Positions 2,980 to 60,065 of a stretch of 64,000 nt of DNA are shown piece by piece; position 1 is the stretch's first letter, and every line of letters starts with the position of its first letter. This DNA is from Methanocella sp. PtaU1.Bin125. Its GTDB lineage: Archaea; Halobacteriota; Methanocellia; Methanocellales; Methanocellaceae. The stretch is from assembly GCA_002067315.1 (NCBI GenBank), contig MVRA01000215.1:1-64000 (forward strand). Direction: 5' to 3'. Under the pieces are notes generated by a model. That model saw only the letters and a program-made list of their open reading frames with translations, was not told the origin of the DNA and ran no database searches. A program made the position numbers and the translations under genes.

Positions 2980-4362
2980 TTGATTCCTAAGCCAGTCCTG
3001 TCTCACATTAACGACAGCCAGGCCCGGTACCTGGCCGATCTCATCGAGTTCCTGCGCATCCCGAGTATCAGCATGTACTCCAGCTACGCGGGCGACGTCA
3101 GGAAGGCCGCGCAATGGGCCCTCGACCGCGCGCAGCGGCTGGGCTTCACGGGCGCGCTGTACGAGACGCCCGGCCACCCGGTGGTCTACGCCGAGCTCTG
3201 CCCGCACAAGGACGCGCCGACGTTGCTCATCTACGGCCACTACGACGTCCAGCCGGCCGAGCCGCTGGAGAAGTGGCTGACCCCGCCCTTCGAGCCCGCC
3301 GTGCGGGACGGCGCGGTCTACGCCCGGGGCGCGACGGACGACAAGGGCCAGCTGTTCACCTACTTCATGGCCATCGAGTCCATCCTGTCGGCCGAAGGCG
3401 AGCTGCCGCTGAACGTCAAGCTGTTCCTGGAGGGCGAGGAGGAGCTGGGCAGCCCGAACATGGACGCGTTCTGCACGGCCCACAGGGAGATGCTCAAGGC
3501 GGACTACGTCGCCGTCTCGGACGGCTCCAAGTTCGAGAAGCACCTGCCGGCCATCGAGTACGGCCTCCGCGGGCTGGTCTACATGCAGCTTGACGTGCAG
3601 GGCCCGGCCTGTGACATACATTCGGGCGTTTACGGCGGCGCGGTCGCGAATCCGGCGCAGGCGCTCGTCGCGATAATACGGACAATGCGGGACGATAAAG
3701 GCCACGTCCTCATCCCCGGGTTCTACGACCGCGTCCGGGCCATCGAGCCCTGGGAGCGGGAGCAGCTCGCCGCGCTGCCGCTGAACGAGGAGTCCATCAA
3801 GACGCTGTTAGGCGTGGACCGGTTCGTCCCGGAAGAGGGCTTCACCTTCCTGGAGAGCACCTGGGCCCGGCCGACCTGCGAGATCAACGGCATCTGGGGC
3901 GGGTTCCAGGGCGAGGGCTCCAAGACCATCATCCCGGCCAGCGCCGGCGCCAAGGTGAGCATGCGGCTGGTGCCCGACCAGGACCCGCTGGAGATCATGC
4001 GCCTGTTCGAAGAGCACGTGCGCAAAGTCACCCCGCCCGGCGTCACGGTCACGATCACGGCCCACGCTCACTCCGGGCCCGTCATCGTCTCCCGGCAGAG
4101 CGACGCCATCCTCGCGGCCGAGAAGTCCCTCACGTACGCCTACGGCCGCAAGCCCGTATTCGTCCGCTCCGGCGGCAGCATCGGCGTGGTCGTCACCATG
4201 AAGGAGCAGCTCGGCATCGAGGAAGTCCTGCTGATCGGCTGGGGCAACCCCGAAGACGGCGAACACTCCCCCAACGAGCACTTCAGCCTGGACGATTTCT
4301 ATAGAGGCACGCTGGCCGTGGCGGCGCTCATGTACGAGCTCGGCGAACGCAAAGCCCCCTGA
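2980..4362 (+). CDS. M20 family metallopeptidase (dipeptidase)
   Basis: A 460-residue M20/M28-type di-zinc peptidase, cytosolic, likely cleaving dipeptides or deacylating N-acyl amino acids. Metal and catalytic motifs are in family order: YGHYDVQPAE (His ligand), ARGATDDKGQ (bridging Asp), EGEEELGSPN (catalytic Glu pair) and VSDGSKF; the dimerisation domain follows after DIHSGVYGG, and a final His ligand lies in GEHSPNEHF. Length is normal for the family. An in-frame TGA at 2971 forces the start to be TTG at 2980. Right after its stop lies inverted-repeat element A1, and the next gene is convergent. Confidence 0.9.
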   Translation: MIPKPVLSHINDSQARYLADLIEFLRIPSISMYSSYAGDVRKAAQWALDRAQRLGFTGALYETPGHPVVYAELCPHKDAPTLLIYGHYDVQPAEPLEKWLTPPFEPAVRDGAVYARGATDDKGQLFTYFMAIESILSAEGELPLNVKLFLEGEEELGSPNMDAFCTAHREMLKADYVAVSDGSKFEKHLPAIEYGLRGLVYMQLDVQGPACDIHSGVYGGAVANPAQALVAIIRTMRDDKGHVLIPGFYDRVRAIEPWEREQLAALPLNEESIKTLLGVDRFVPEEGFTFLESTWARPTCEINGIWGGFQGEGSKTIIPASAGAKVSMRLVPDQDPLEIMRLFEEHVRKVTPPGVTVTITAHAHSGPVIVSRQSDAILAAEKSLTYAYGRKPVFVRSGGSIGVVVTMKEQLGIEEVLLIGWGNPEDGEHSPNEHFSLDDFYRGTLAVAALMYELGERKAP

Positions 4363-4377
4363 CACCCGCCCACCGCT

Positions 4378-4613
4378 AAGCCGCCAAGTGTCCAAGAAGA
4401 GAGTCCAAGACGCCACTGTAGAAACTAAGAGACGCCAGGGCGCCAAGTCTTTTTTTATATTCAAGTCGCCAAGGGGCCAAGCGGGTGTTGCTCGATCAAA
4501 TAAAGTCCTTGGAATCTTAGCATCTTGATCTAAAAAATAAATCTTGGACACTTGGCGCCTCTTAGTTTCTACAGTGGCGTCCTGGCGTCTTCTCTTGGAC
4601 CCTTGGCGCCTTG
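4378..4613. repeat. Long imperfect inverted repeat, family A copy 1
   Basis: The gap between two convergent genes is almost wholly an inverted repeat. The left arm (4382-4450) is built of CCAAG-type sub-repeats about 10 nt apart and contains ccactgtagaaactaag (core 4409-4431); the right arm (4548-4612) carries the exact complement (4559-4581). The ~100-base centre is AT-rich with a T-run at 4450-4456. A second copy with the same core lies at 35090-35306. The stem could serve as a two-way terminator, but its repetition suggests a dispersed element. Confidence 0.85.
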
Positions 4614-4618
4614 TGCGA

Positions 4619-4825
4619 TTATTTTTTCACTTTTGATTCCACCTCGCGGAGGCGGAGTTCCATCTCGATCAGGGCGTTCATCAGCGCGGCCTCGCTCGGG
4701 TCGACGTGGTTCACCAGGGTCTCCTCCCGGCGGCCGGCCAGCTCGTACATGATGAAGTCGAAGACCTCGCGGCGCCGCTTATCAAGCGTCAGGCGGTAGC
4801 CTTCCCATCGTTTTGCGACGCGCAT
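4619..4825 (-). CDS. Small coiled-coil protein coupled to the DNA polymerase gene
   Basis: A 68-residue hypothetical protein beginning MRVAKRWEGYRLTLDKRR. The start ATG at 4825 overlaps the polymerase stop in the sequence TGATG, so translation is probably coupled. An upstream ATG at 4843 exists but lies inside the polymerase frame. The C-terminal third (ALMNALIEMELRLREVESKVKK) is strongly heptad-like, so a helical oligomer or a partner-binding helix is likely. No catalytic motif is visible and I do not recognise a family. Its tight link to the polymerase suggests a role in the same process, but that is inference only. Confidence 0.6.
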   Translation of the reverse strand: MRVAKRWEGYRLTLDKRRREVFDFIMYELAGRREETLVNHVDPSEAALMNALIEMELRLREVESKVKK

Positions 4826-7317
4826 CAGACATAGGCCTGGCACGGTTCCGCCTCCCTGTGGACGTCTTCCCGGACGTCCTCGTATGCGTCCTTTCCGGAT
4901 GCCTCAGCGCAGACATCCCTTCCGGACGCCTTTGTACAGGCATCCCTTCCGGATGCCTCGTCGTAGGCATCCCTTCTGGATGCCTTTGTATAGGCATCCA
5001 GCCTCGTCTGCCGCGGGCCGGGCAGGAGGTCCTCGTACTTCACCCCGAACTCGCGCAGCAGCGCGTAGATCGGGCGCACGGTGTTCTCTATATAGGAGGC
5101 GACGTCGTAGGCCGGGGCTTCGCCGGCGAGCTGCCGCGGGACGGCCCGGCGGGGCCCGGTGACGATGTACTCGATCTTGCCTCCAATCCTCACGGACTGG
5201 CCGCTGGCCGCCAGCGCCTCCGCGGCGACGGTGTGGTGCCCGCCGGCCTTGTATTCCTCCGGGCGGCGGGACAGCTTGCGGACGATGACCAGCTCGTCGG
5301 CCGTGACGCGGCCCGCGGCGATACGGGCGGCCTCGCCGCGGACGCAGGCCGCGACCTCCGGGAGCACGGCCCGGAAGCCGGCCGCGTCCCGCGCGGCGGC
5401 GAGCATGTGCAGCACGCGGTCCTGCACCTGTTTCGCGATGGCCGGGCGGTCCTGGCGGCGCACCTCCAGGCCGCGGACGAGGACTTCGCCGTCCTCGCTG
5501 GCGAAGTACTTCTTCTTCAGCCCTTTCTTCCCCCCGGGGCGCTCCGGGACGAAGAGCACCCAGCGGCAGACGTGCTCCAGCTTGAGCTCCATCTCGAACG
5601 CCGCGCTGACCCGGTCGCAGAACGCCTGATAGGAGCCGCGGTCGCCGCCCTGGATGAACAGCGAGTCCGTGTCGGCGTAGACCACGTTGAAGCCCGCGGC
5701 CTCGGCCATGTCCCGGGCCTGCAGCAGGTACCAGCGGCCGTACGCGGGGATGGAACGGTTGCCGTCCACGCTCCGGAAGTTGTTCAGCGCGAACTGCATG
5801 TACCCGTACGGGCTGACCAGCTGCATCTTCAGGGACCGGTAGAGCACGTCCAGCCGGCGGTACTCGTCGCTCTCCGGGTCCAGCGCCTTCAGCCGCCGCT
5901 TCACCGCGTCCCGCTCCGCCAGGACGCGCCCGAACACCTCCGGGTAGACGCCCCGGCGCTTCGTGCAGATGTGGAAGCCGAGGAACGGCACCTTCTCCCC
6001 GCGCTCCGCGCACTCCGGGTGGCGGCAGTTGATCGTCTCGGGGCTGATGTTGTGTTTTACGAAGATGCGCGGGAACAGCGAGGAGAAGTCCACGATGGCC
6101 ACGTTCTCGTGGAGCCCGGCCTCCGGCGTGATGACTAAGCCGCCGTTCTCCTTCAGCCGCTCGACCGCAGGGGTCTTGAAGCCCTCCGGGAACTCCTGCT
6201 CGTCCGGTATCACGGTCGACGCGATGAGCGCGGAATTCACCGCGGACGCGTTCATGAAGCCGTGCTTCTCCCGGCAGACCGAGTCCAGCGGCATCAGGCA
6301 CCGCTGGCACCACGACAGCAGCATCGGGAGCCGCTCCTGCGCGAGCCGGTGCACCATGGCGGCGGGAGTAGCCCCGTCTTTGCCGAACTCCGAGCCGAAC
6401 ACGGAGTCCAGCGTCAGGCCGGTGCGCTTCAGGTCGGCGTCCGTCCGGGCGTCCTTCCACAGGTCCATGATGACGCGCCCGGGCGCCCGCACCTGCTTCG
6501 CCTGCCAGTGCCGGATCGTGCCCCGGGGCAGGTACAGCCGGGTGGGCTCCGGCAGCCGCCCGAGCCGGAGACGGATGCCGTGGTCCCGGGCTCGCAGCCC
6601 CAGCAGCGGCAGCGTCTCCCAGTCGGCGTCGAACACCGCGATCGCGTCCGGGTCGGCGGCGTCGATGGCCTCCTGCAACGCGCGGAGCAGGTCCCCTTCG
6701 GCGCCGGAGAACTTACGCTCGGTGAGCGTACCATCTCCGAGCGCGCGCTGCTCGTCGCCCGTGCAAACCGATATCGCGTCGAGGCGGCATTCGGCCGGCA
6801 CCCGCGAGCTGAACGAGGGATAGACTGACATGAGCCGGAAGTCCCCCGCGTCGCCCGGGCCCTCGTACGCGATAGCCTTGAGCATCCCGTCCCGGCACTC
6901 GGCCGTGACCTTCGAGTGCGGCGGTATCCGCCGGATGAAGTGCCACTGCAGCTCCGCCGGCAGCTTCCGCTCGGCGAATCGCACCGCCGCCGGCGCCCGG
7001 GCGGCGATCTCGCGCATGGTCTCCTCCGCCCGGCGCTCGTCCGCGAGGAAGGCCCGGATGACCGGCGCCTTCTCGGCCGCGTAGATCGACGGGTAGCGCA
7101 GGGACGTCTCGGTGTGGTGGACGTTGTCGTGCTGTGCGACCGCGTGCTCGACCATTGCAGCGTTGCCCGACGGGACGATGGCGAATGACGGGCGAAACTC
7201 AGCGTCCTCGATACACGTCACGCCGCCAGGGCCGCGGATCCAGAGCAGGTAGCCTCCGGGGAGCGCGTCGGTCGAGGCCCTGTGCCACACGTCGATGAGA
7301 GTGCCGGTTATTCGCAT
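4825..7317 (-). CDS. Family B DNA polymerase with repeat tail
   Basis: An 830-residue archaeal B-family polymerase. Palm motif A is VDFSSLFPRIFVKHNISPETI, motif B is KMQLVSPYGY (the usual Asn is Val) and motif C is YADTDSLFI, so both catalytic aspartates are present. Motif B of this kind resembles the archaeal PolB subgroup reading LVxxxGY. The exonuclease region is weak: the candidate ExoI is LDAISV where DIE is expected and ExoII is FDADWETLP, so proofreading may be lost. The last ~60 residues are a 9-residue tandem repeat. The start at 7317 (MRITGTLIDVW) is chosen because GGAGGAAGC precedes it; the frame remains open upstream to 7425. The small gene downstream overlaps its stop. Confidence 0.88.
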   Translation of the reverse strand: MRITGTLIDVWHRASTDALPGGYLLWIRGPGGVTCIEDAEFRPSFAIVPSGNAAMVEHAVAQHDNVHHTETSLRYPSIYAAEKAPVIRAFLADERRAEETMREIAARAPAAVRFAERKLPAELQWHFIRRIPPHSKVTAECRDGMLKAIAYEGPGDAGDFRLMSVYPSFSSRVPAECRLDAISVCTGDEQRALGDGTLTERKFSGAEGDLLRALQEAIDAADPDAIAVFDADWETLPLLGLRARDHGIRLRLGRLPEPTRLYLPRGTIRHWQAKQVRAPGRVIMDLWKDARTDADLKRTGLTLDSVFGSEFGKDGATPAAMVHRLAQERLPMLLSWCQRCLMPLDSVCREKHGFMNASAVNSALIASTVIPDEQEFPEGFKTPAVERLKENGGLVITPEAGLHENVAIVDFSSLFPRIFVKHNISPETINCRHPECAERGEKVPFLGFHICTKRRGVYPEVFGRVLAERDAVKRRLKALDPESDEYRRLDVLYRSLKMQLVSPYGYMQFALNNFRSVDGNRSIPAYGRWYLLQARDMAEAAGFNVVYADTDSLFIQGGDRGSYQAFCDRVSAAFEMELKLEHVCRWVLFVPERPGGKKGLKKKYFASEDGEVLVRGLEVRRQDRPAIAKQVQDRVLHMLAAARDAAGFRAVLPEVAACVRGEAARIAAGRVTADELVIVRKLSRRPEEYKAGGHHTVAAEALAASGQSVRIGGKIEYIVTGPRRAVPRQLAGEAPAYDVASYIENTVRPIYALLREFGVKYEDLLPGPRQTRLDAYTKASRRDAYDEASGRDACTKASGRDVCAEASGKDAYEDVREDVHREAEPCQAYV
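4885..5005. repeat. 27-bp tandem repeats with internal hairpins
   Basis: Units begin at 4885, 4912, 4939, 4966 and 4993, a constant 27-base step. Several contain the small palindrome GGCATCC-cttcc-GGATGCC. They lie in frame inside the 3' end of the polymerase gene and encode a nine-residue repeat of the form D-A-[YC]-x-[KE]-A-S-[GR]-[RK]. The last unit is partial. Confidence 0.9.
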
Positions 7318-33514: not shown

Positions 33515-35083
33515 ATGAACGAACTCGAACTGGAGGCCCTGGTCTCCGCCGGGGAGACGAGCAACATCGAGTTCAAGGAGCTGCTCAACGAGCACACGCA
33601 CCTGAACTCCCGGCGGATGGAGAACCTGGCCTGCCAGATGAAGCACCGCGTGATCGCGGGCAACGGCAGCGCCATCTACGTGATCGGGGTCACGGACGCG
33701 GGAAGCATGAAGGGCATCCCCCGCGCGGAGTTCGACGAGACCGTGTTCGTGCTGGACAATATCGCCATGGAGATCGACGCCAGAGTCACCGGGGTCGAGG
33801 AGTACCAGGTCAACGGCGGCCTGGTCGGCCTGGTCTCGGTGGAGAGCAACCCGAAGACCGCGGAACACATCCTGATCGGCACCGCGGGCCACGTGGACCA
33901 CGGGAAGAGCACGCTGGTCGGCGCGCTGGTGACGGGCACGACCGACGACGGCGCGGGCCGGACCCGTATCTACCTGGACGTGCTGCCGCACGAGATAGCC
34001 CGCGGGCTGTCTGCCGACCTGTCCTATGCGGTGTACGGCATCAAGGGCAAAGACGTCATCCACCTGAAGAATCCGCTCAACAAGAAGGAGAGCGCCAACG
34101 TCGTGGCCCAGGCGGACAAGATCATCTCTTTTGTGGACACCGTAGGCCATGAGCCCTGGCTCCGCACGACTATCCGGGGCATCGTGGGCCAGAAGCTGGA
34201 CTACGGCCTCCTCGTCGTGGCGGCGGACGACGGGGTGACCCACATCACCAGGGAGCACCTGGGGATCCTGCTGGCCATGGAGCTGCCGGTGATCATCGCG
34301 CTGACGAAGGTCGATATCGCGACAGCAGAGCAGATCAGGAAGGCGGAGTCGGCCATCCACAACGTCCTCAAGCTGGTCGGCCGGGTGCCCTACCGGGTGA
34401 AGGCCGCGGGCGACGTCGCCACGGTCGCGGTAAAGGCGCCGGAGGGCATCGTGGTCCCGCTCATATACACGTCATCCGTTACCCGGGAGGGCTATGACCT
34501 GCTGGAGCGGCTCATCTTCAGCCTCCCCAAGCGGAACCTGATGTCGAAAGAGCCGTTCGAGCTGTACATCGACCGCATCTACCAGGTGGACGGCGTGGGC
34601 GTGGTCGTCAGCGGCACGATCAAGCAGGGCGAACTGGCGCCGAACGAGTCGCTCTACCTGGGCCCGATGAAAGACGGCTCCTTCGCCCGGGTGAAAGTAC
34701 AGTCCATCGAGATGCACCACTACCGCGTCAACCGCGGCAGCGCCGGGGACATCGTCGGCGTCGCCATTAAGGGCGTCCGGCCGTCGGAGATCGTCCGGGG
34801 CATGGTCCTCGCCCGGGAACAGCCGGAGGCCACCTGGGAGTTCGACGCGGAGATCCTCATCCTGAACCATCCCACGCGCATCGGCCTCGGCTACGAGCCC
34901 GTCATCCACCTGGAGACGATCTGCGAGGCCGTCGAGGTCGTCGGCCTGGACACGGACTACATGATGGCCGGCCAGCAGGGCCGCGCCCGGATACGGTTCA
35001 AGTTCCGGCCCTACGTCGTGGAGCCGGGGCAGAAGTTCATCTTCCGCGAGGGCAAAAGCAAAGGCGTCGGCCGCGTTTTGTAA
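33515..35083 (+). CDS. GTPBP1-type translational GTPase
   Basis: A 522-residue EF-Tu-like GTPase. An N-terminal ~110-residue extension precedes the G domain: G1 GTAGHVDHGKSTL, G3 DTVGHEPW, G4 LTKVD; then domain II (VDGVGVVVSGTIKQGELAPNESLYLGP) and domain III ending YVVEPGQKFIFREG. The N-terminal extension plus this order matches archaeal homologues of eukaryotic GTPBP1/2, thought to act in ribosome rescue or mRNA turnover. The cellular role in methanogens is not established. Its 3' end faces element A2. Confidence 0.85.
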   Translation: MNELELEALVSAGETSNIEFKELLNEHTHLNSRRMENLACQMKHRVIAGNGSAIYVIGVTDAGSMKGIPRAEFDETVFVLDNIAMEIDARVTGVEEYQVNGGLVGLVSVESNPKTAEHILIGTAGHVDHGKSTLVGALVTGTTDDGAGRTRIYLDVLPHEIARGLSADLSYAVYGIKGKDVIHLKNPLNKKESANVVAQADKIISFVDTVGHEPWLRTTIRGIVGQKLDYGLLVVAADDGVTHITREHLGILLAMELPVIIALTKVDIATAEQIRKAESAIHNVLKLVGRVPYRVKAAGDVATVAVKAPEGIVVPLIYTSSVTREGYDLLERLIFSLPKRNLMSKEPFELYIDRIYQVDGVGVVVSGTIKQGELAPNESLYLGPMKDGSFARVKVQSIEMHHYRVNRGSAGDIVGVAIKGVRPSEIVRGMVLAREQPEATWEFDAEILILNHPTRIGLGYEPVIHLETICEAVEVVGLDTDYMMAGQQGRARIRFKFRPYVVEPGQKFIFREGKSKGVGRVL

Positions 35084-35089
35084 AGGCAC

Positions 35090-35306
35090 CAAGTGTCCAA
35101 GAGAAGAGTCCAAGACGCCACTGTAGAAACTAAGAGGCGCCAAAAGGCCAAGACTTTATTTTTATATCAAGCGGCCAAGATGCGAAGGTATTTTCAGAGT
35201 TGATTATTGTTCTTGAGCTCTTGGTAACTTGAACCTAAAAAATCTTGGCGCCCTGGCGCCTCATATTTTCTACAGTGGCGCCTTGGACTCTTCTCTTGGA
35301 CACCTG
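35090..35306. repeat. Long imperfect inverted repeat, family A copy 2
   Basis: The left arm carries the same core as copy 1 (ccactgtagaaactaag, 35114-35136) and the same flanking ccaagtgtccaag sub-repeats; the right arm has ttttctacagtggcg (35265-35279). It fills the gap between two convergent genes, as copy 1 does, with an AT-rich centre. Confidence 0.85.
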
Positions 35307-35312
35307 GCGGCT

Positions 35313-36119
35313 TTATTTTATCGCCGTGCCTTTGAAGAAGGTGTAGCAGAAGACGCCGTCGGAGGCGGTGGTCCGGTACAGGCCGGCGATGCCTTTGTCC
35401 CAGGTCGTCTCGTCGATCAGGCCGGAGGCCAGCGCCGGGCCGCGGACGCCCTCCACCATGGCGGTGAACGTGTTCATCGTGAAGCCCTCGACCAGCCCGG
35501 GGCGGCTGGCGTCGACGTAGACCATGCGAGGCGAGACGCGGACGTCCCGGAAGCCGGCCGACGCGATGAGGGGGTACAGCTCCCGGCCGATCAGCGCGTT
35601 ACCACCTGCCGATCGCTGCAGGTCGACGAGGCACCGGATGGCTCGCGTGGCCTCCAGGCTCTCCGGGTGGAAGCAGCAGGAGCCGTGATCGCCCTCGATG
35701 ACGGTGATCGTGCCGCCGGGCTTCAGCACGCGTTTCAGCGCAGCCAGCGCCTCAACCGGCCGGGGCAGGTGCTCAAGGACGAAGCAGACGAAGACGTGAT
35801 CGAACGTCCCGTCCCCGAAGGGCAGGCGAAAGATGTCGGCCACCTGGAAATCCACGTTCCTGATGCCGTTTTGCCGGGCCAGCGACCGGGCTTTTTCGAC
35901 CGAGGCGGGCGAGAGGTCGACGGAAGTGACCGCGGCCCCGGGGCTGTGCTCCGCCAGGATGATCGTCTGTGCGCCCACGCCGCAGCCCGCTTCCAGCACC
36001 CGGCTGCCCGCGGGATACACCGTATCGTGGTGCAGGATACCGGCGAGCGTATTCGCCTGGTCACGGAGGCGCGATCGCTCCCGGTCCGAGTATCCGTGGA
36101 CATAGTCATTGGCGCCCAT
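35313..36119 (-). CDS. Class I SAM-dependent methyltransferase
   Basis: A 268-residue methyltransferase: motif I VLEAGCGVGAQT, motif II TSVDLSPASVEKA, VADIFRLPFGDGTFDHVF and the post-IV segment VLKPGGTITVIEGDHG. The overall look is of the UbiE/COQ5-like group; the substrate is not known. The start at 36119 gives MGANDYVHGYSDRE, a common opening in this group. Divergent from the DHH gene. Confidence 0.85.
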   Translation of the reverse strand: MGANDYVHGYSDRERSRLRDQANTLAGILHHDTVYPAGSRVLEAGCGVGAQTIILAEHSPGAAVTSVDLSPASVEKARSLARQNGIRNVDFQVADIFRLPFGDGTFDHVFVCFVLEHLPRPVEALAALKRVLKPGGTITVIEGDHGSCCFHPESLEATRAIRCLVDLQRSAGGNALIGRELYPLIASAGFRDVRVSPRMVYVDASRPGLVEGFTMNTFTAMVEGVRGPALASGLIDETTWDKGIAGLYRTTASDGVFCYTFFKGTAIK

Positions 36120-37344: not shown

Positions 37345-37590
37345 CACACAGGGCGCGGTTAAAGACCGCAAAGAACGCAGAGGAGCGCGGAGAGCGCAGT
37401 TTCCCTTTTAGATATCGTTTACTTAAATTAAAAAAGAAACTGCGGGCTCTGCGCTCCTCTGCGATCTCTGCGGCCTTTTACCGCGCTGTAGTTCCTTCAC
37501 GCATAGCAGGACAACGACCAGATTTTCATCATCTCATACCTGACAAGGGCACCTGTCATCAGCCGACTCTCTGCGGTCTTTAACCATTTC
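37345..37590. repeat. Long imperfect inverted repeat, family B
   Basis: Between convergent DHH and mch genes. The left arm (37355-37405) uses cgcaaagaacgcagagg and gcgcagtttccc; the right arm (37432-37490) has aaactgcgggctctgcgctc and ctctgcggcc. A third fragment ctctctgcggtctttaacc (37566-37584) repeats the outer arm. Architecture as in family A but different sequence. Filling about 250 bases, it leaves no room for a gene. Confidence 0.75.
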
Positions 37591-50860: not shown

Positions 50861-50910
50861 TTTTTTATGATGACAGCTAATAACGCCTTGCTCAGGCTAT
50901 GCGACTCCTG

Positions 50911-50962
50911 TCACGCCCGCCAAGAGCGCCAGGTAGCCAGGGGCGCCAAGGCTTTTTATTAA
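50911..50962. repeat. Fragment of family A repeat
   Basis: The string cgcccgccaagagcgccag followed by gccaggggcgccaagg and a T-run (cttttta) has the CCAAG sub-repeats of family A but no right arm. It lies between convergent genes, as the full copies do. Confidence 0.55.
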
Positions 50963-56939: not shown

Positions 56940-57175
56940 GGGACTGAATACTCGCGACGACGCGGACATCTGCTGATGTCCGGCGACGAAACGCGACGGG
57001 CGCAACGACGGTTAACGGATAATCCGCTATATTATCATTCTTAAAAACGTCGCGCCCGTCGCGTTTCGTCGCGATCGTCGCGAGAACTTAGAGAAACGTC
57101 GCGCCCGTCGCGTTTCATTGCGATCGTCGCGAGTACGGGTACGACAGGCCCCCGAAACCAAGCCCATTTCATTGA
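56940..57175. repeat. Inverted-repeat element, family C copy 1
   Basis: Arms of GACG/CGCG sub-repeats: left 56983-57017 (cgacgaaacgcgacgggcg), right 57046-57075 (cgtcgcgcccgtcgcgtttc) and a second right arm at 57092-57133. A flank gacaggcccccg...cattt at 57140-57174 is shared with copy 2, and both copies have the same orientation. It occupies part of the 690-base gap between padR and cobQ; the rest (57176-57439) has no gene, only a GC-alternating motif at 57338 and a ctctgtggactctgt string near 57394. Confidence 0.8.
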
Positions 57176-59894: not shown

Positions 59895-60065
59895 GCACAG
59901 TACTGATTCCCGCAACGACCGCAACGAAAGCGACGGGCGCGACGACTGTTAAACGATAACGGGTTGTGATATCATTCTTCGAGAAACGTCGCGCCCGTTG
60001 CGTTTCGTCGCGCTCGTAGCGAGGATCAGTATGACAGGCCCCCGTAACAAGGCCCACTTCATTGC
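59895..60065. repeat. Inverted-repeat element, family C copy 2
   Basis: Left arm 59928-59960 (cgaaagcgacgggcgcgacg), right arm 59983-60020 (aaacgtcgcgcccgttgcg), with the loop atatcattctt and the 3' flank gacaggcccccgtaac shared with copy 1. The copies lie in the same direction on either side of cobQ and the DUF169 gene. The remaining gap to 60421 holds two GC-alternating motifs (60113, 60271) and an AT-rich promoter after 60340. Confidence 0.8.

What the first reader, a model, noticed from the sequence alone, without database searches (positions are those of the whole stretch)
4378..4613. Family A inverted repeat recurs 30 kb apart between convergent genes
Copies at 4378-4613 and 35090-35306 share the core ccactgtagaaactaag and its flanks in both arms, and a half copy sits at 50911-50962. 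All three fall between genes that face each other. Stems built of ~10-nt CCAAG sub-repeats look like a dispersed element reused as a two-way terminator.
Basis: seen in the sequence. Interest (0 to 1): 0.65.

Follow-up and report, generated by a model that had tools for sequence, protein, structure and literature searches.

The report
Archaeal inverted repeat at gene ends
About 45 copies of a roughly 235-base inverted repeat sit right against gene stop codons in this methanogen-like archaeon, mostly between genes that run towards each other, and look like a two-way transcription stop signal that a close relative has replaced with a different but similarly built repeat.

Summary
The two full copies in the window (4378-4613, 35083-35313) are real. 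The "half copy" at 50911-50962 is a different family without the core. The genome carries 99 arm matches in 46 clusters: 24 between convergent genes, 16 tandem, 0 divergent, 6 at contig ends. 51 of 64 stop-facing ends lie -1 to 9 nt from a stop codon.

The host is an archaeon, probably Methanocella-like. Each arm is an array of CCARG words with free 3-nt spacers, a fixed 17-nt core, and a T5-9 tract that transcription leaving the adjacent gene reads as U. In archaea U tracts, not hairpins, terminate transcription. Between copies sharing a centre, words and core differ by about 3%, the centre by 17% and spacers by 28%: dispersed copies stay under constraint.

The family is absent from the same-genus genome and from 294 sampled genomes of the phylum. 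That relative has its own CACAGAG-word family with the same grammar. Of six orthologous convergent gaps, three are short and empty there and three hold unrelated inverted repeats.

Best reading: a dispersed bidirectional terminator or 3'-end module. A tolerated selfish repeat is the main rival. No transcript data exist, so termination is inferred.

The parts
4378..4613 (.). Family A inverted element, copy 1 (two arms plus centre)
   Evidence: RNA fold z -12.4
4378..4475 (+). left arm of copy 1 (CCAAG array, core 4413-4429, T7 tract 4450-4456)
   Evidence: profile match 98.1 bits; sequence
4515..4612 (-). right arm of copy 1 (core 4561-4577 on minus strand; T6 tract on minus strand = A run 4532-4537)
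   Evidence: profile match 91.7 bits; sequence
2980..4362 (+). left flanking gene (M20 peptidase), stop codon about 16 nt before copy 1
   Evidence: gene calls, Pfam
4619..4825 (-). right flanking gene (68 aa, no Pfam hit), convergent, stop codon about 7 nt after copy 1
35083..35313 (.). Family A inverted element, copy 2; shares its centre with the copy on contig C106 (L036)
   Evidence: RNA fold z -15.3
35083..35180 (+). left arm of copy 2 (core 35118-35134, T5 tract 35159-35163)
   Evidence: 90.4 bits; sequence
35219..35313 (-). right arm of copy 2 (core 35262-35278 with 2 mismatches; A run 35237-35242 = T6 on minus strand)
   Evidence: 89.1 bits; sequence
33515..35083 (+). left flanking gene (EF-Tu-like GTPase, archaeal relatives), stop codon abuts copy 2
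35313..36119 (-). right flanking gene (methyltransferase), convergent, stop codon abuts copy 2
50902..50962 (.). NOT family A: a single arm of a second family (B) with CCAAG words but no core; read on the plus strand its words are followed by T5

Best explanation
Family A is a dispersed archaeal 3'-end element made of two tail-to-tail copies of one module. Each module has CCARG words separated by free 3-nt spacers, a fixed 17-nt core, more words, a T5-9 tract, and further words. Transcription leaving a gene enters the near arm within a few nt of the stop codon, produces a U-poor, word-rich 3' UTR and then, about 75 nt on, a U tract. There the archaeal polymerase pauses and is released, with cleavage by aCPSF1/FttA. 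Because the arms are inverted, one element serves both convergent genes. Shown here: anatomy, copy number, stop-codon adjacency, orientation bias, oriented T tracts, constraint on words and core after dispersal, lineage specificity, and presence of aCPSF1/FttA. Inferred: that termination happens at the U tract, that the words are read by a protein or are otherwise needed for it, and how copies spread.
For: Placement 24 convergent / 16 tandem / 0 divergent / 6 contig edge, with 51 of 64 stop-facing ends within -1..9 nt of a stop codon. In tandem contexts the side facing the next gene keeps 29-98 nt clear in the 13 elements measured, and up to 461 nt in one of the full set. T5 or longer occurs in 72 of 80 arms and A5 or longer in 1. 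Within 100 nt after the stop, T5+ occurs at 95% (convergent) and 85% (tandem) of element ends, against 32% and 41% of other 3' ends. U-tract termination and aCPSF1 cleavage in archaea: PMC7515710. aCPSF1/FttA is present at 1030 bits. In six copies sharing a centre, pairwise difference is core 2.9%, words 3.5%, centre 17%, spacers 28%. Word variants are almost only CCAGG, 41 of 51 single-step changes, which points to sequence-specific reading rather than pairing.
Against: No transcript 3' ends were available. The T tract also lies inside a very stable stem, and a plain archaeal U-tract terminator would not require an inverted element. In tandem contexts both arms are equally conserved although only one faces a gene end. 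That suggests the inverted unit matters as a whole or spreads as a whole. Absence from divergent gaps is also expected for any insertion that is harmful in promoters.
Confidence: 0.5

Rival explanations
1. A MITE/REP-like selfish repeat that spread in this lineage and survives where it does no harm, namely directly after stop codons and away from promoters; it has no role for the host.
For: Whole-unit copies share unique centres at unlinked loci. Absent from the same-genus genome and from all 294 other genomes sampled in the phylum. Orthologous gaps are short and empty in the relative: 247 vs 37, 315 vs 36, 289 vs 17 nt. REPs in bacteria show similar placement between convergent and unidirectional genes (PMC3733652).
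Against: Words and core stay constrained while spacers and centre diverge 17-28%; a dead insertion would decay evenly. No target-site duplication in 34 elements. The only Y1 transposase found is a plain IS200-like gene with no core next to it. Ends sit almost exactly on stop codons.
Confidence: 0.25
2. A DNA-level element: an array of CCARG sites in two orientations bound by a chromosome-organising protein, or a cruciform/topology element that absorbs the positive supercoils between converging polymerases.
For: Sequence-specific constraint on words with free spacers looks like an array of protein sites. Convergent gaps are where positive supercoiling accumulates (general knowledge). Both arms are conserved in tandem contexts.
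Against: Does not explain the strand-specific T tract or adjacency to a single stop codon in tandem gaps.
Confidence: 0.15
3. An mRNA 3'-end stability element: read-through RNA folds into a long hairpin that blocks 3' exonucleases or is cut by a double-strand nuclease.
For: Folding far beyond shuffles. The arms of one element match each other slightly better than the arms of others (0.835 vs 0.809, permutation p 1e-4).
Against: Spacers of the two arms vary mostly independently, and word changes are not pair-preserving in general. The within-element excess could be template-switch correction of palindromes.
Confidence: 0.1

Closest known systems
Paired uptake-signal (USS/DUS) terminators of Neisseria and Pasteurellaceae (PMC1852404)
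   Same: A dispersed sequence word set in inverted pairs, enriched between tail-to-tail genes, with oriented A/T tails, doubling as two-way terminators.
   Different: Those are short hairpins of one 10-nt word per arm in bacteria, with the T tail outside the stem. Here each arm is about 100 nt with several words, a core and an internal T tract, in an archaeon. No uptake role was tested.
REP / BIME / REPIN repeats with RAYT transposases (PMC3733652, PMC2817692)
   Same: Intergenic, palindromic, species-specific, found after coding regions between convergent and tandem genes, paired in inverted orientation.
   Different: No terminal GTAG/CGTC tag, no RAYT association, much longer units (about 235 nt against 20-40), and an internal word-plus-free-spacer array.
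MITEs
   Same: Short non-coding inverted elements dispersed as whole copies.
   Different: No target-site duplication and no matching transposon found; words constrained long after dispersal.
Archaeal U-tract terminators with aCPSF1/FttA cleavage (PMC7515710)
   Same: Oriented U tract downstream of the stop codon; aCPSF1 present.
   Different: Known ones are simple U-rich stretches without repeats or stems; here the tract is embedded in a conserved dispersed inverted element.

Membership tests
REP/REPIN (RAYT-associated) | Short (20-40 nt) palindrome ending in a GTAG or CGTC tag | tested here: not met
   Arms are about 100 nt; outer end consensus is AAGnCGCCAAG; GTAG occurs only inside the core
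REP/REPIN (RAYT-associated) | RAYT gene flanked by the repeats in the genome | tested here: not met
   One Y1_Tnp in the genome, IS200-like, no core in its flanks
REP/REPIN (RAYT-associated) | Extragenic, downstream of coding regions, mainly between convergent and tandem genes | tested here: met
   24/16/0
MITE | Target-site duplication | tested here: not met
   Own flanks match no better than those of other elements for k = 2-10
MITE | Terminal inverted repeats shared with an autonomous transposon | tested here: inconclusive
   No arm pair with a transposon-sized insert among the 46 clusters, but several contigs end inside an element
MITE | Dispersed as whole copies with empty orthologous sites | tested here: met
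   Shared centres; three short empty convergent gaps and one tandem gap in the same-genus genome
Archaeal U-tract terminator | Run of T on the coding strand shortly after the stop codon | tested here: met
   72/80 arms; 95%/85% of element 3' ends
Archaeal U-tract terminator | Transcript 3' ends map to the tract and shift when aCPSF1 is depleted | not testable with these tools
   No RNA data held
Paired USS/DUS terminator | Word is a DNA-uptake signal recognised by the competence machinery | not tested
   No search for uptake or competence genes was made
Rfam families | Match at gathering score | tested here: not met
   No hit in the window or in three further loci

The most novel reading that the evidence does not exclude
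Related archaea use one shared grammar for two-way 3'-end elements (short fixed words with free 3-nt spacers, inverted about an AT-rich centre). Each lineage writes it with a different word (CCARG here, CACAGAG in the same-genus relative), read by a lineage-specific nucleic-acid-binding protein that links word recognition to termination. The word and its reader turn over together, so orthologous gene pairs end up with unrelated elements in the same gap.
Probability: 0.18. Interest if true: 0.78.

Novelty: new variant of a known kind. Interest (0 to 1): 0.55.

Why it matters
Archaeal terminators are thought to be plain U tracts. A large, constrained, dispersed inverted element that packages U tracts for both convergent genes, and that is replaced by a differently worded one in a sister species, would show how termination signals can spread and turn over like mobile DNA. 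It also gives a clear set of sites at which to look for an unknown factor that recognises 3' UTR sequence.

Tried and rejected
RAYT/REPIN origin: one IS200-like transposase, not flanked by the element. Target-site duplication: none. Rfam: none. Core (20-nt form) elsewhere: none in 84,980 species genomes or in viral contigs (records very near the own genome may be left out there); the 16-nt core is in none of 294 other genomes of the phylum. The looser word-array pattern is likewise unique among the 295 genomes; four single hits in viral contigs are about what chance gives, by my estimate. 50911-50962 as a half copy: rejected, it is another family. Bacterial-type intrinsic terminator: not favoured, because the host is archaeal and the T tract lies inside the arm rather than after the stem. 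Literature searches found no description of these elements; the library holds open-licence papers only.

Full report
What is there. The window copies at 4378-4613 and 35083-35313 are inverted elements whose arms share the core CCACTGTAGAAACTAAG and long flanks. The genome (3.24 Mb, 219 contigs) has 51 exact cores and none of the reversed control. A sequence profile of the arm finds 99 matches in this genome and none in the three nearest genomes. After reading the fetched loci there are 46 clusters. All but one of the 40 placeable ones hold at least one arm in each orientation; four of those have a tandemly doubled left arm, and the exception is a degraded single arm.

Anatomy. The arm consensus is AAGnCGCCAAGtGTCCAAGAngAGnggCCAAGACG-CCACTGTAGAAACTAAG-AGgCGCCAAGgCGCCAAGtgTntTTTTTannTTCAAGnnGCCAAGnnnCCAAG, followed by an AT-rich centre. 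Information is about zero outside the first AAG, so the outer boundary is sharp. Words are CCAAG, or less often CCAGG (378 of 400 word positions together); the 3-nt spacers are largely free. A T5-9 tract sits about 20 nt after the core in 72 of 80 arms, always in the outer-to-inner direction; an A5+ run in the same place occurs in 1 of 80.

Placement. Of 46 clusters, 24 lie between convergent genes, 16 between tandem genes, none between divergent genes, and 6 at contig ends. For an earlier set, 22/13/0 against 35/119/74 for other gaps of at least 100 nt gives p about 2e-10. Of 64 ends that face a stop codon, 51 lie -1 to 9 nt from it. In tandem gaps the other side stays well clear of the next gene start: 29-98 nt in 13 elements, with one larger value of 461 nt in the full set. 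The orientation and distance counts rest on my own simple gene caller, not on a published annotation.

The host. Relatives of the 522-aa neighbour are archaeal. The same-genus genome is 3,179,916 bases in one contig and a same-family genome 2,957,635 bases. From memory these are the sizes of Methanocella arvoryzae MRE50 and M. paludicola SANAE, so I take the host to be of the Methanocellales; the names were not confirmed by a tool. aCPSF1/FttA is present. In archaea U-rich tracts without a hairpin, together with aCPSF1 cleavage, end transcription (PMC7515710). Accordingly, T5+ runs within 100 nt after stop codons are about twice as frequent as A5+ runs at ordinary tandem 3' ends here (0.41 vs 0.21), though not clearly so at ordinary convergent ends (0.32 vs 0.26), and reach 0.85-0.95 at element ends.

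Constraint. Six elements share a unique centre and so descend from one copy (L013, first clustered with them, was left out). Between them the centre differs by 17% and spacers by 28%, but words by 3.5% and core by 2.9% (variable columns, core plus words against centre, p 2e-4). Copies were picked by core similarity, which favours the core figure; the centre was the clustering criterion, which makes the contrast with the centre conservative. So dispersed copies have been under selection, or some homogenisation specific to words. A freshly spread, decaying repeat would not look like this.

Sister species. The family is absent from the same-genus genome, which carries its own families. One of them has CACAGAG words with free 3-nt spacers: 291 matches of CACAGAGNNNCACAGAG there, 1 here, none in 39 others. 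That family is also inverted, with its words in the outer-to-inner sense in 17 of 17 cases, and is mostly between convergent genes (12 convergent, 4 tandem, 1 divergent). Long inverted repeats of any family occupy 31 of 80 convergent, 25 of 212 tandem and 1 of 102 divergent gaps here, and 39/126, 28/500 and 10/219 there; 0 of 300 shuffled gaps reached even a lower threshold. The figures for the own genome come from loci that were fetched because they hold family A, so they are enriched for it. Of six family A convergent gaps whose two genes are still convergent neighbours in the relative, three are short and empty there and three contain inverted repeats of unrelated sequence.

Judgement. The evidence favours a functional, dispersed 3'-end element; a bidirectional archaeal terminator is the simplest reading. 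What remains open is why both arms are always kept, what reads the words, and how the copies spread. Termination itself is inferred.

Noticed in passing
window 37353-37486: A second kind of inverted repeat (58-nt arms, CGCAGAG words) between convergent genes; nine gaps with this family in the fetched loci, words always in the outer-to-inner sense.
   Followed up: partly
window 57038-57174 and 59977-60064: Repeats built of CGTCGCG words, another family, also forming inverted repeats elsewhere in the genome.
   Followed up: partly
window 50902-50962: Single arm of family B (CCAAG words plus GTGACAGGAGTCG). A similar CCAAG-word arrangement exists in the same-genus genome (e.g. G001 1147193-1147696), so B may be the older, genus-level family.
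   Followed up: partly
L024 9737-9800 (contig C44 near its end): A family A arm interrupted just after the core by unrelated sequence that looks like the end of an insertion sequence.
   Followed up: no
L021 5069-5234: Tandem array of a roughly 30-nt unit containing CCCGGTGTAATACCG and CACGGTAAAATACTG between tandem genes.
   Followed up: no
window 4886-4993: Three tandem repeats of a 27-nt unit (GCATCCCTTCCGGATGCCT...) inside a coding region.
   Followed up: no
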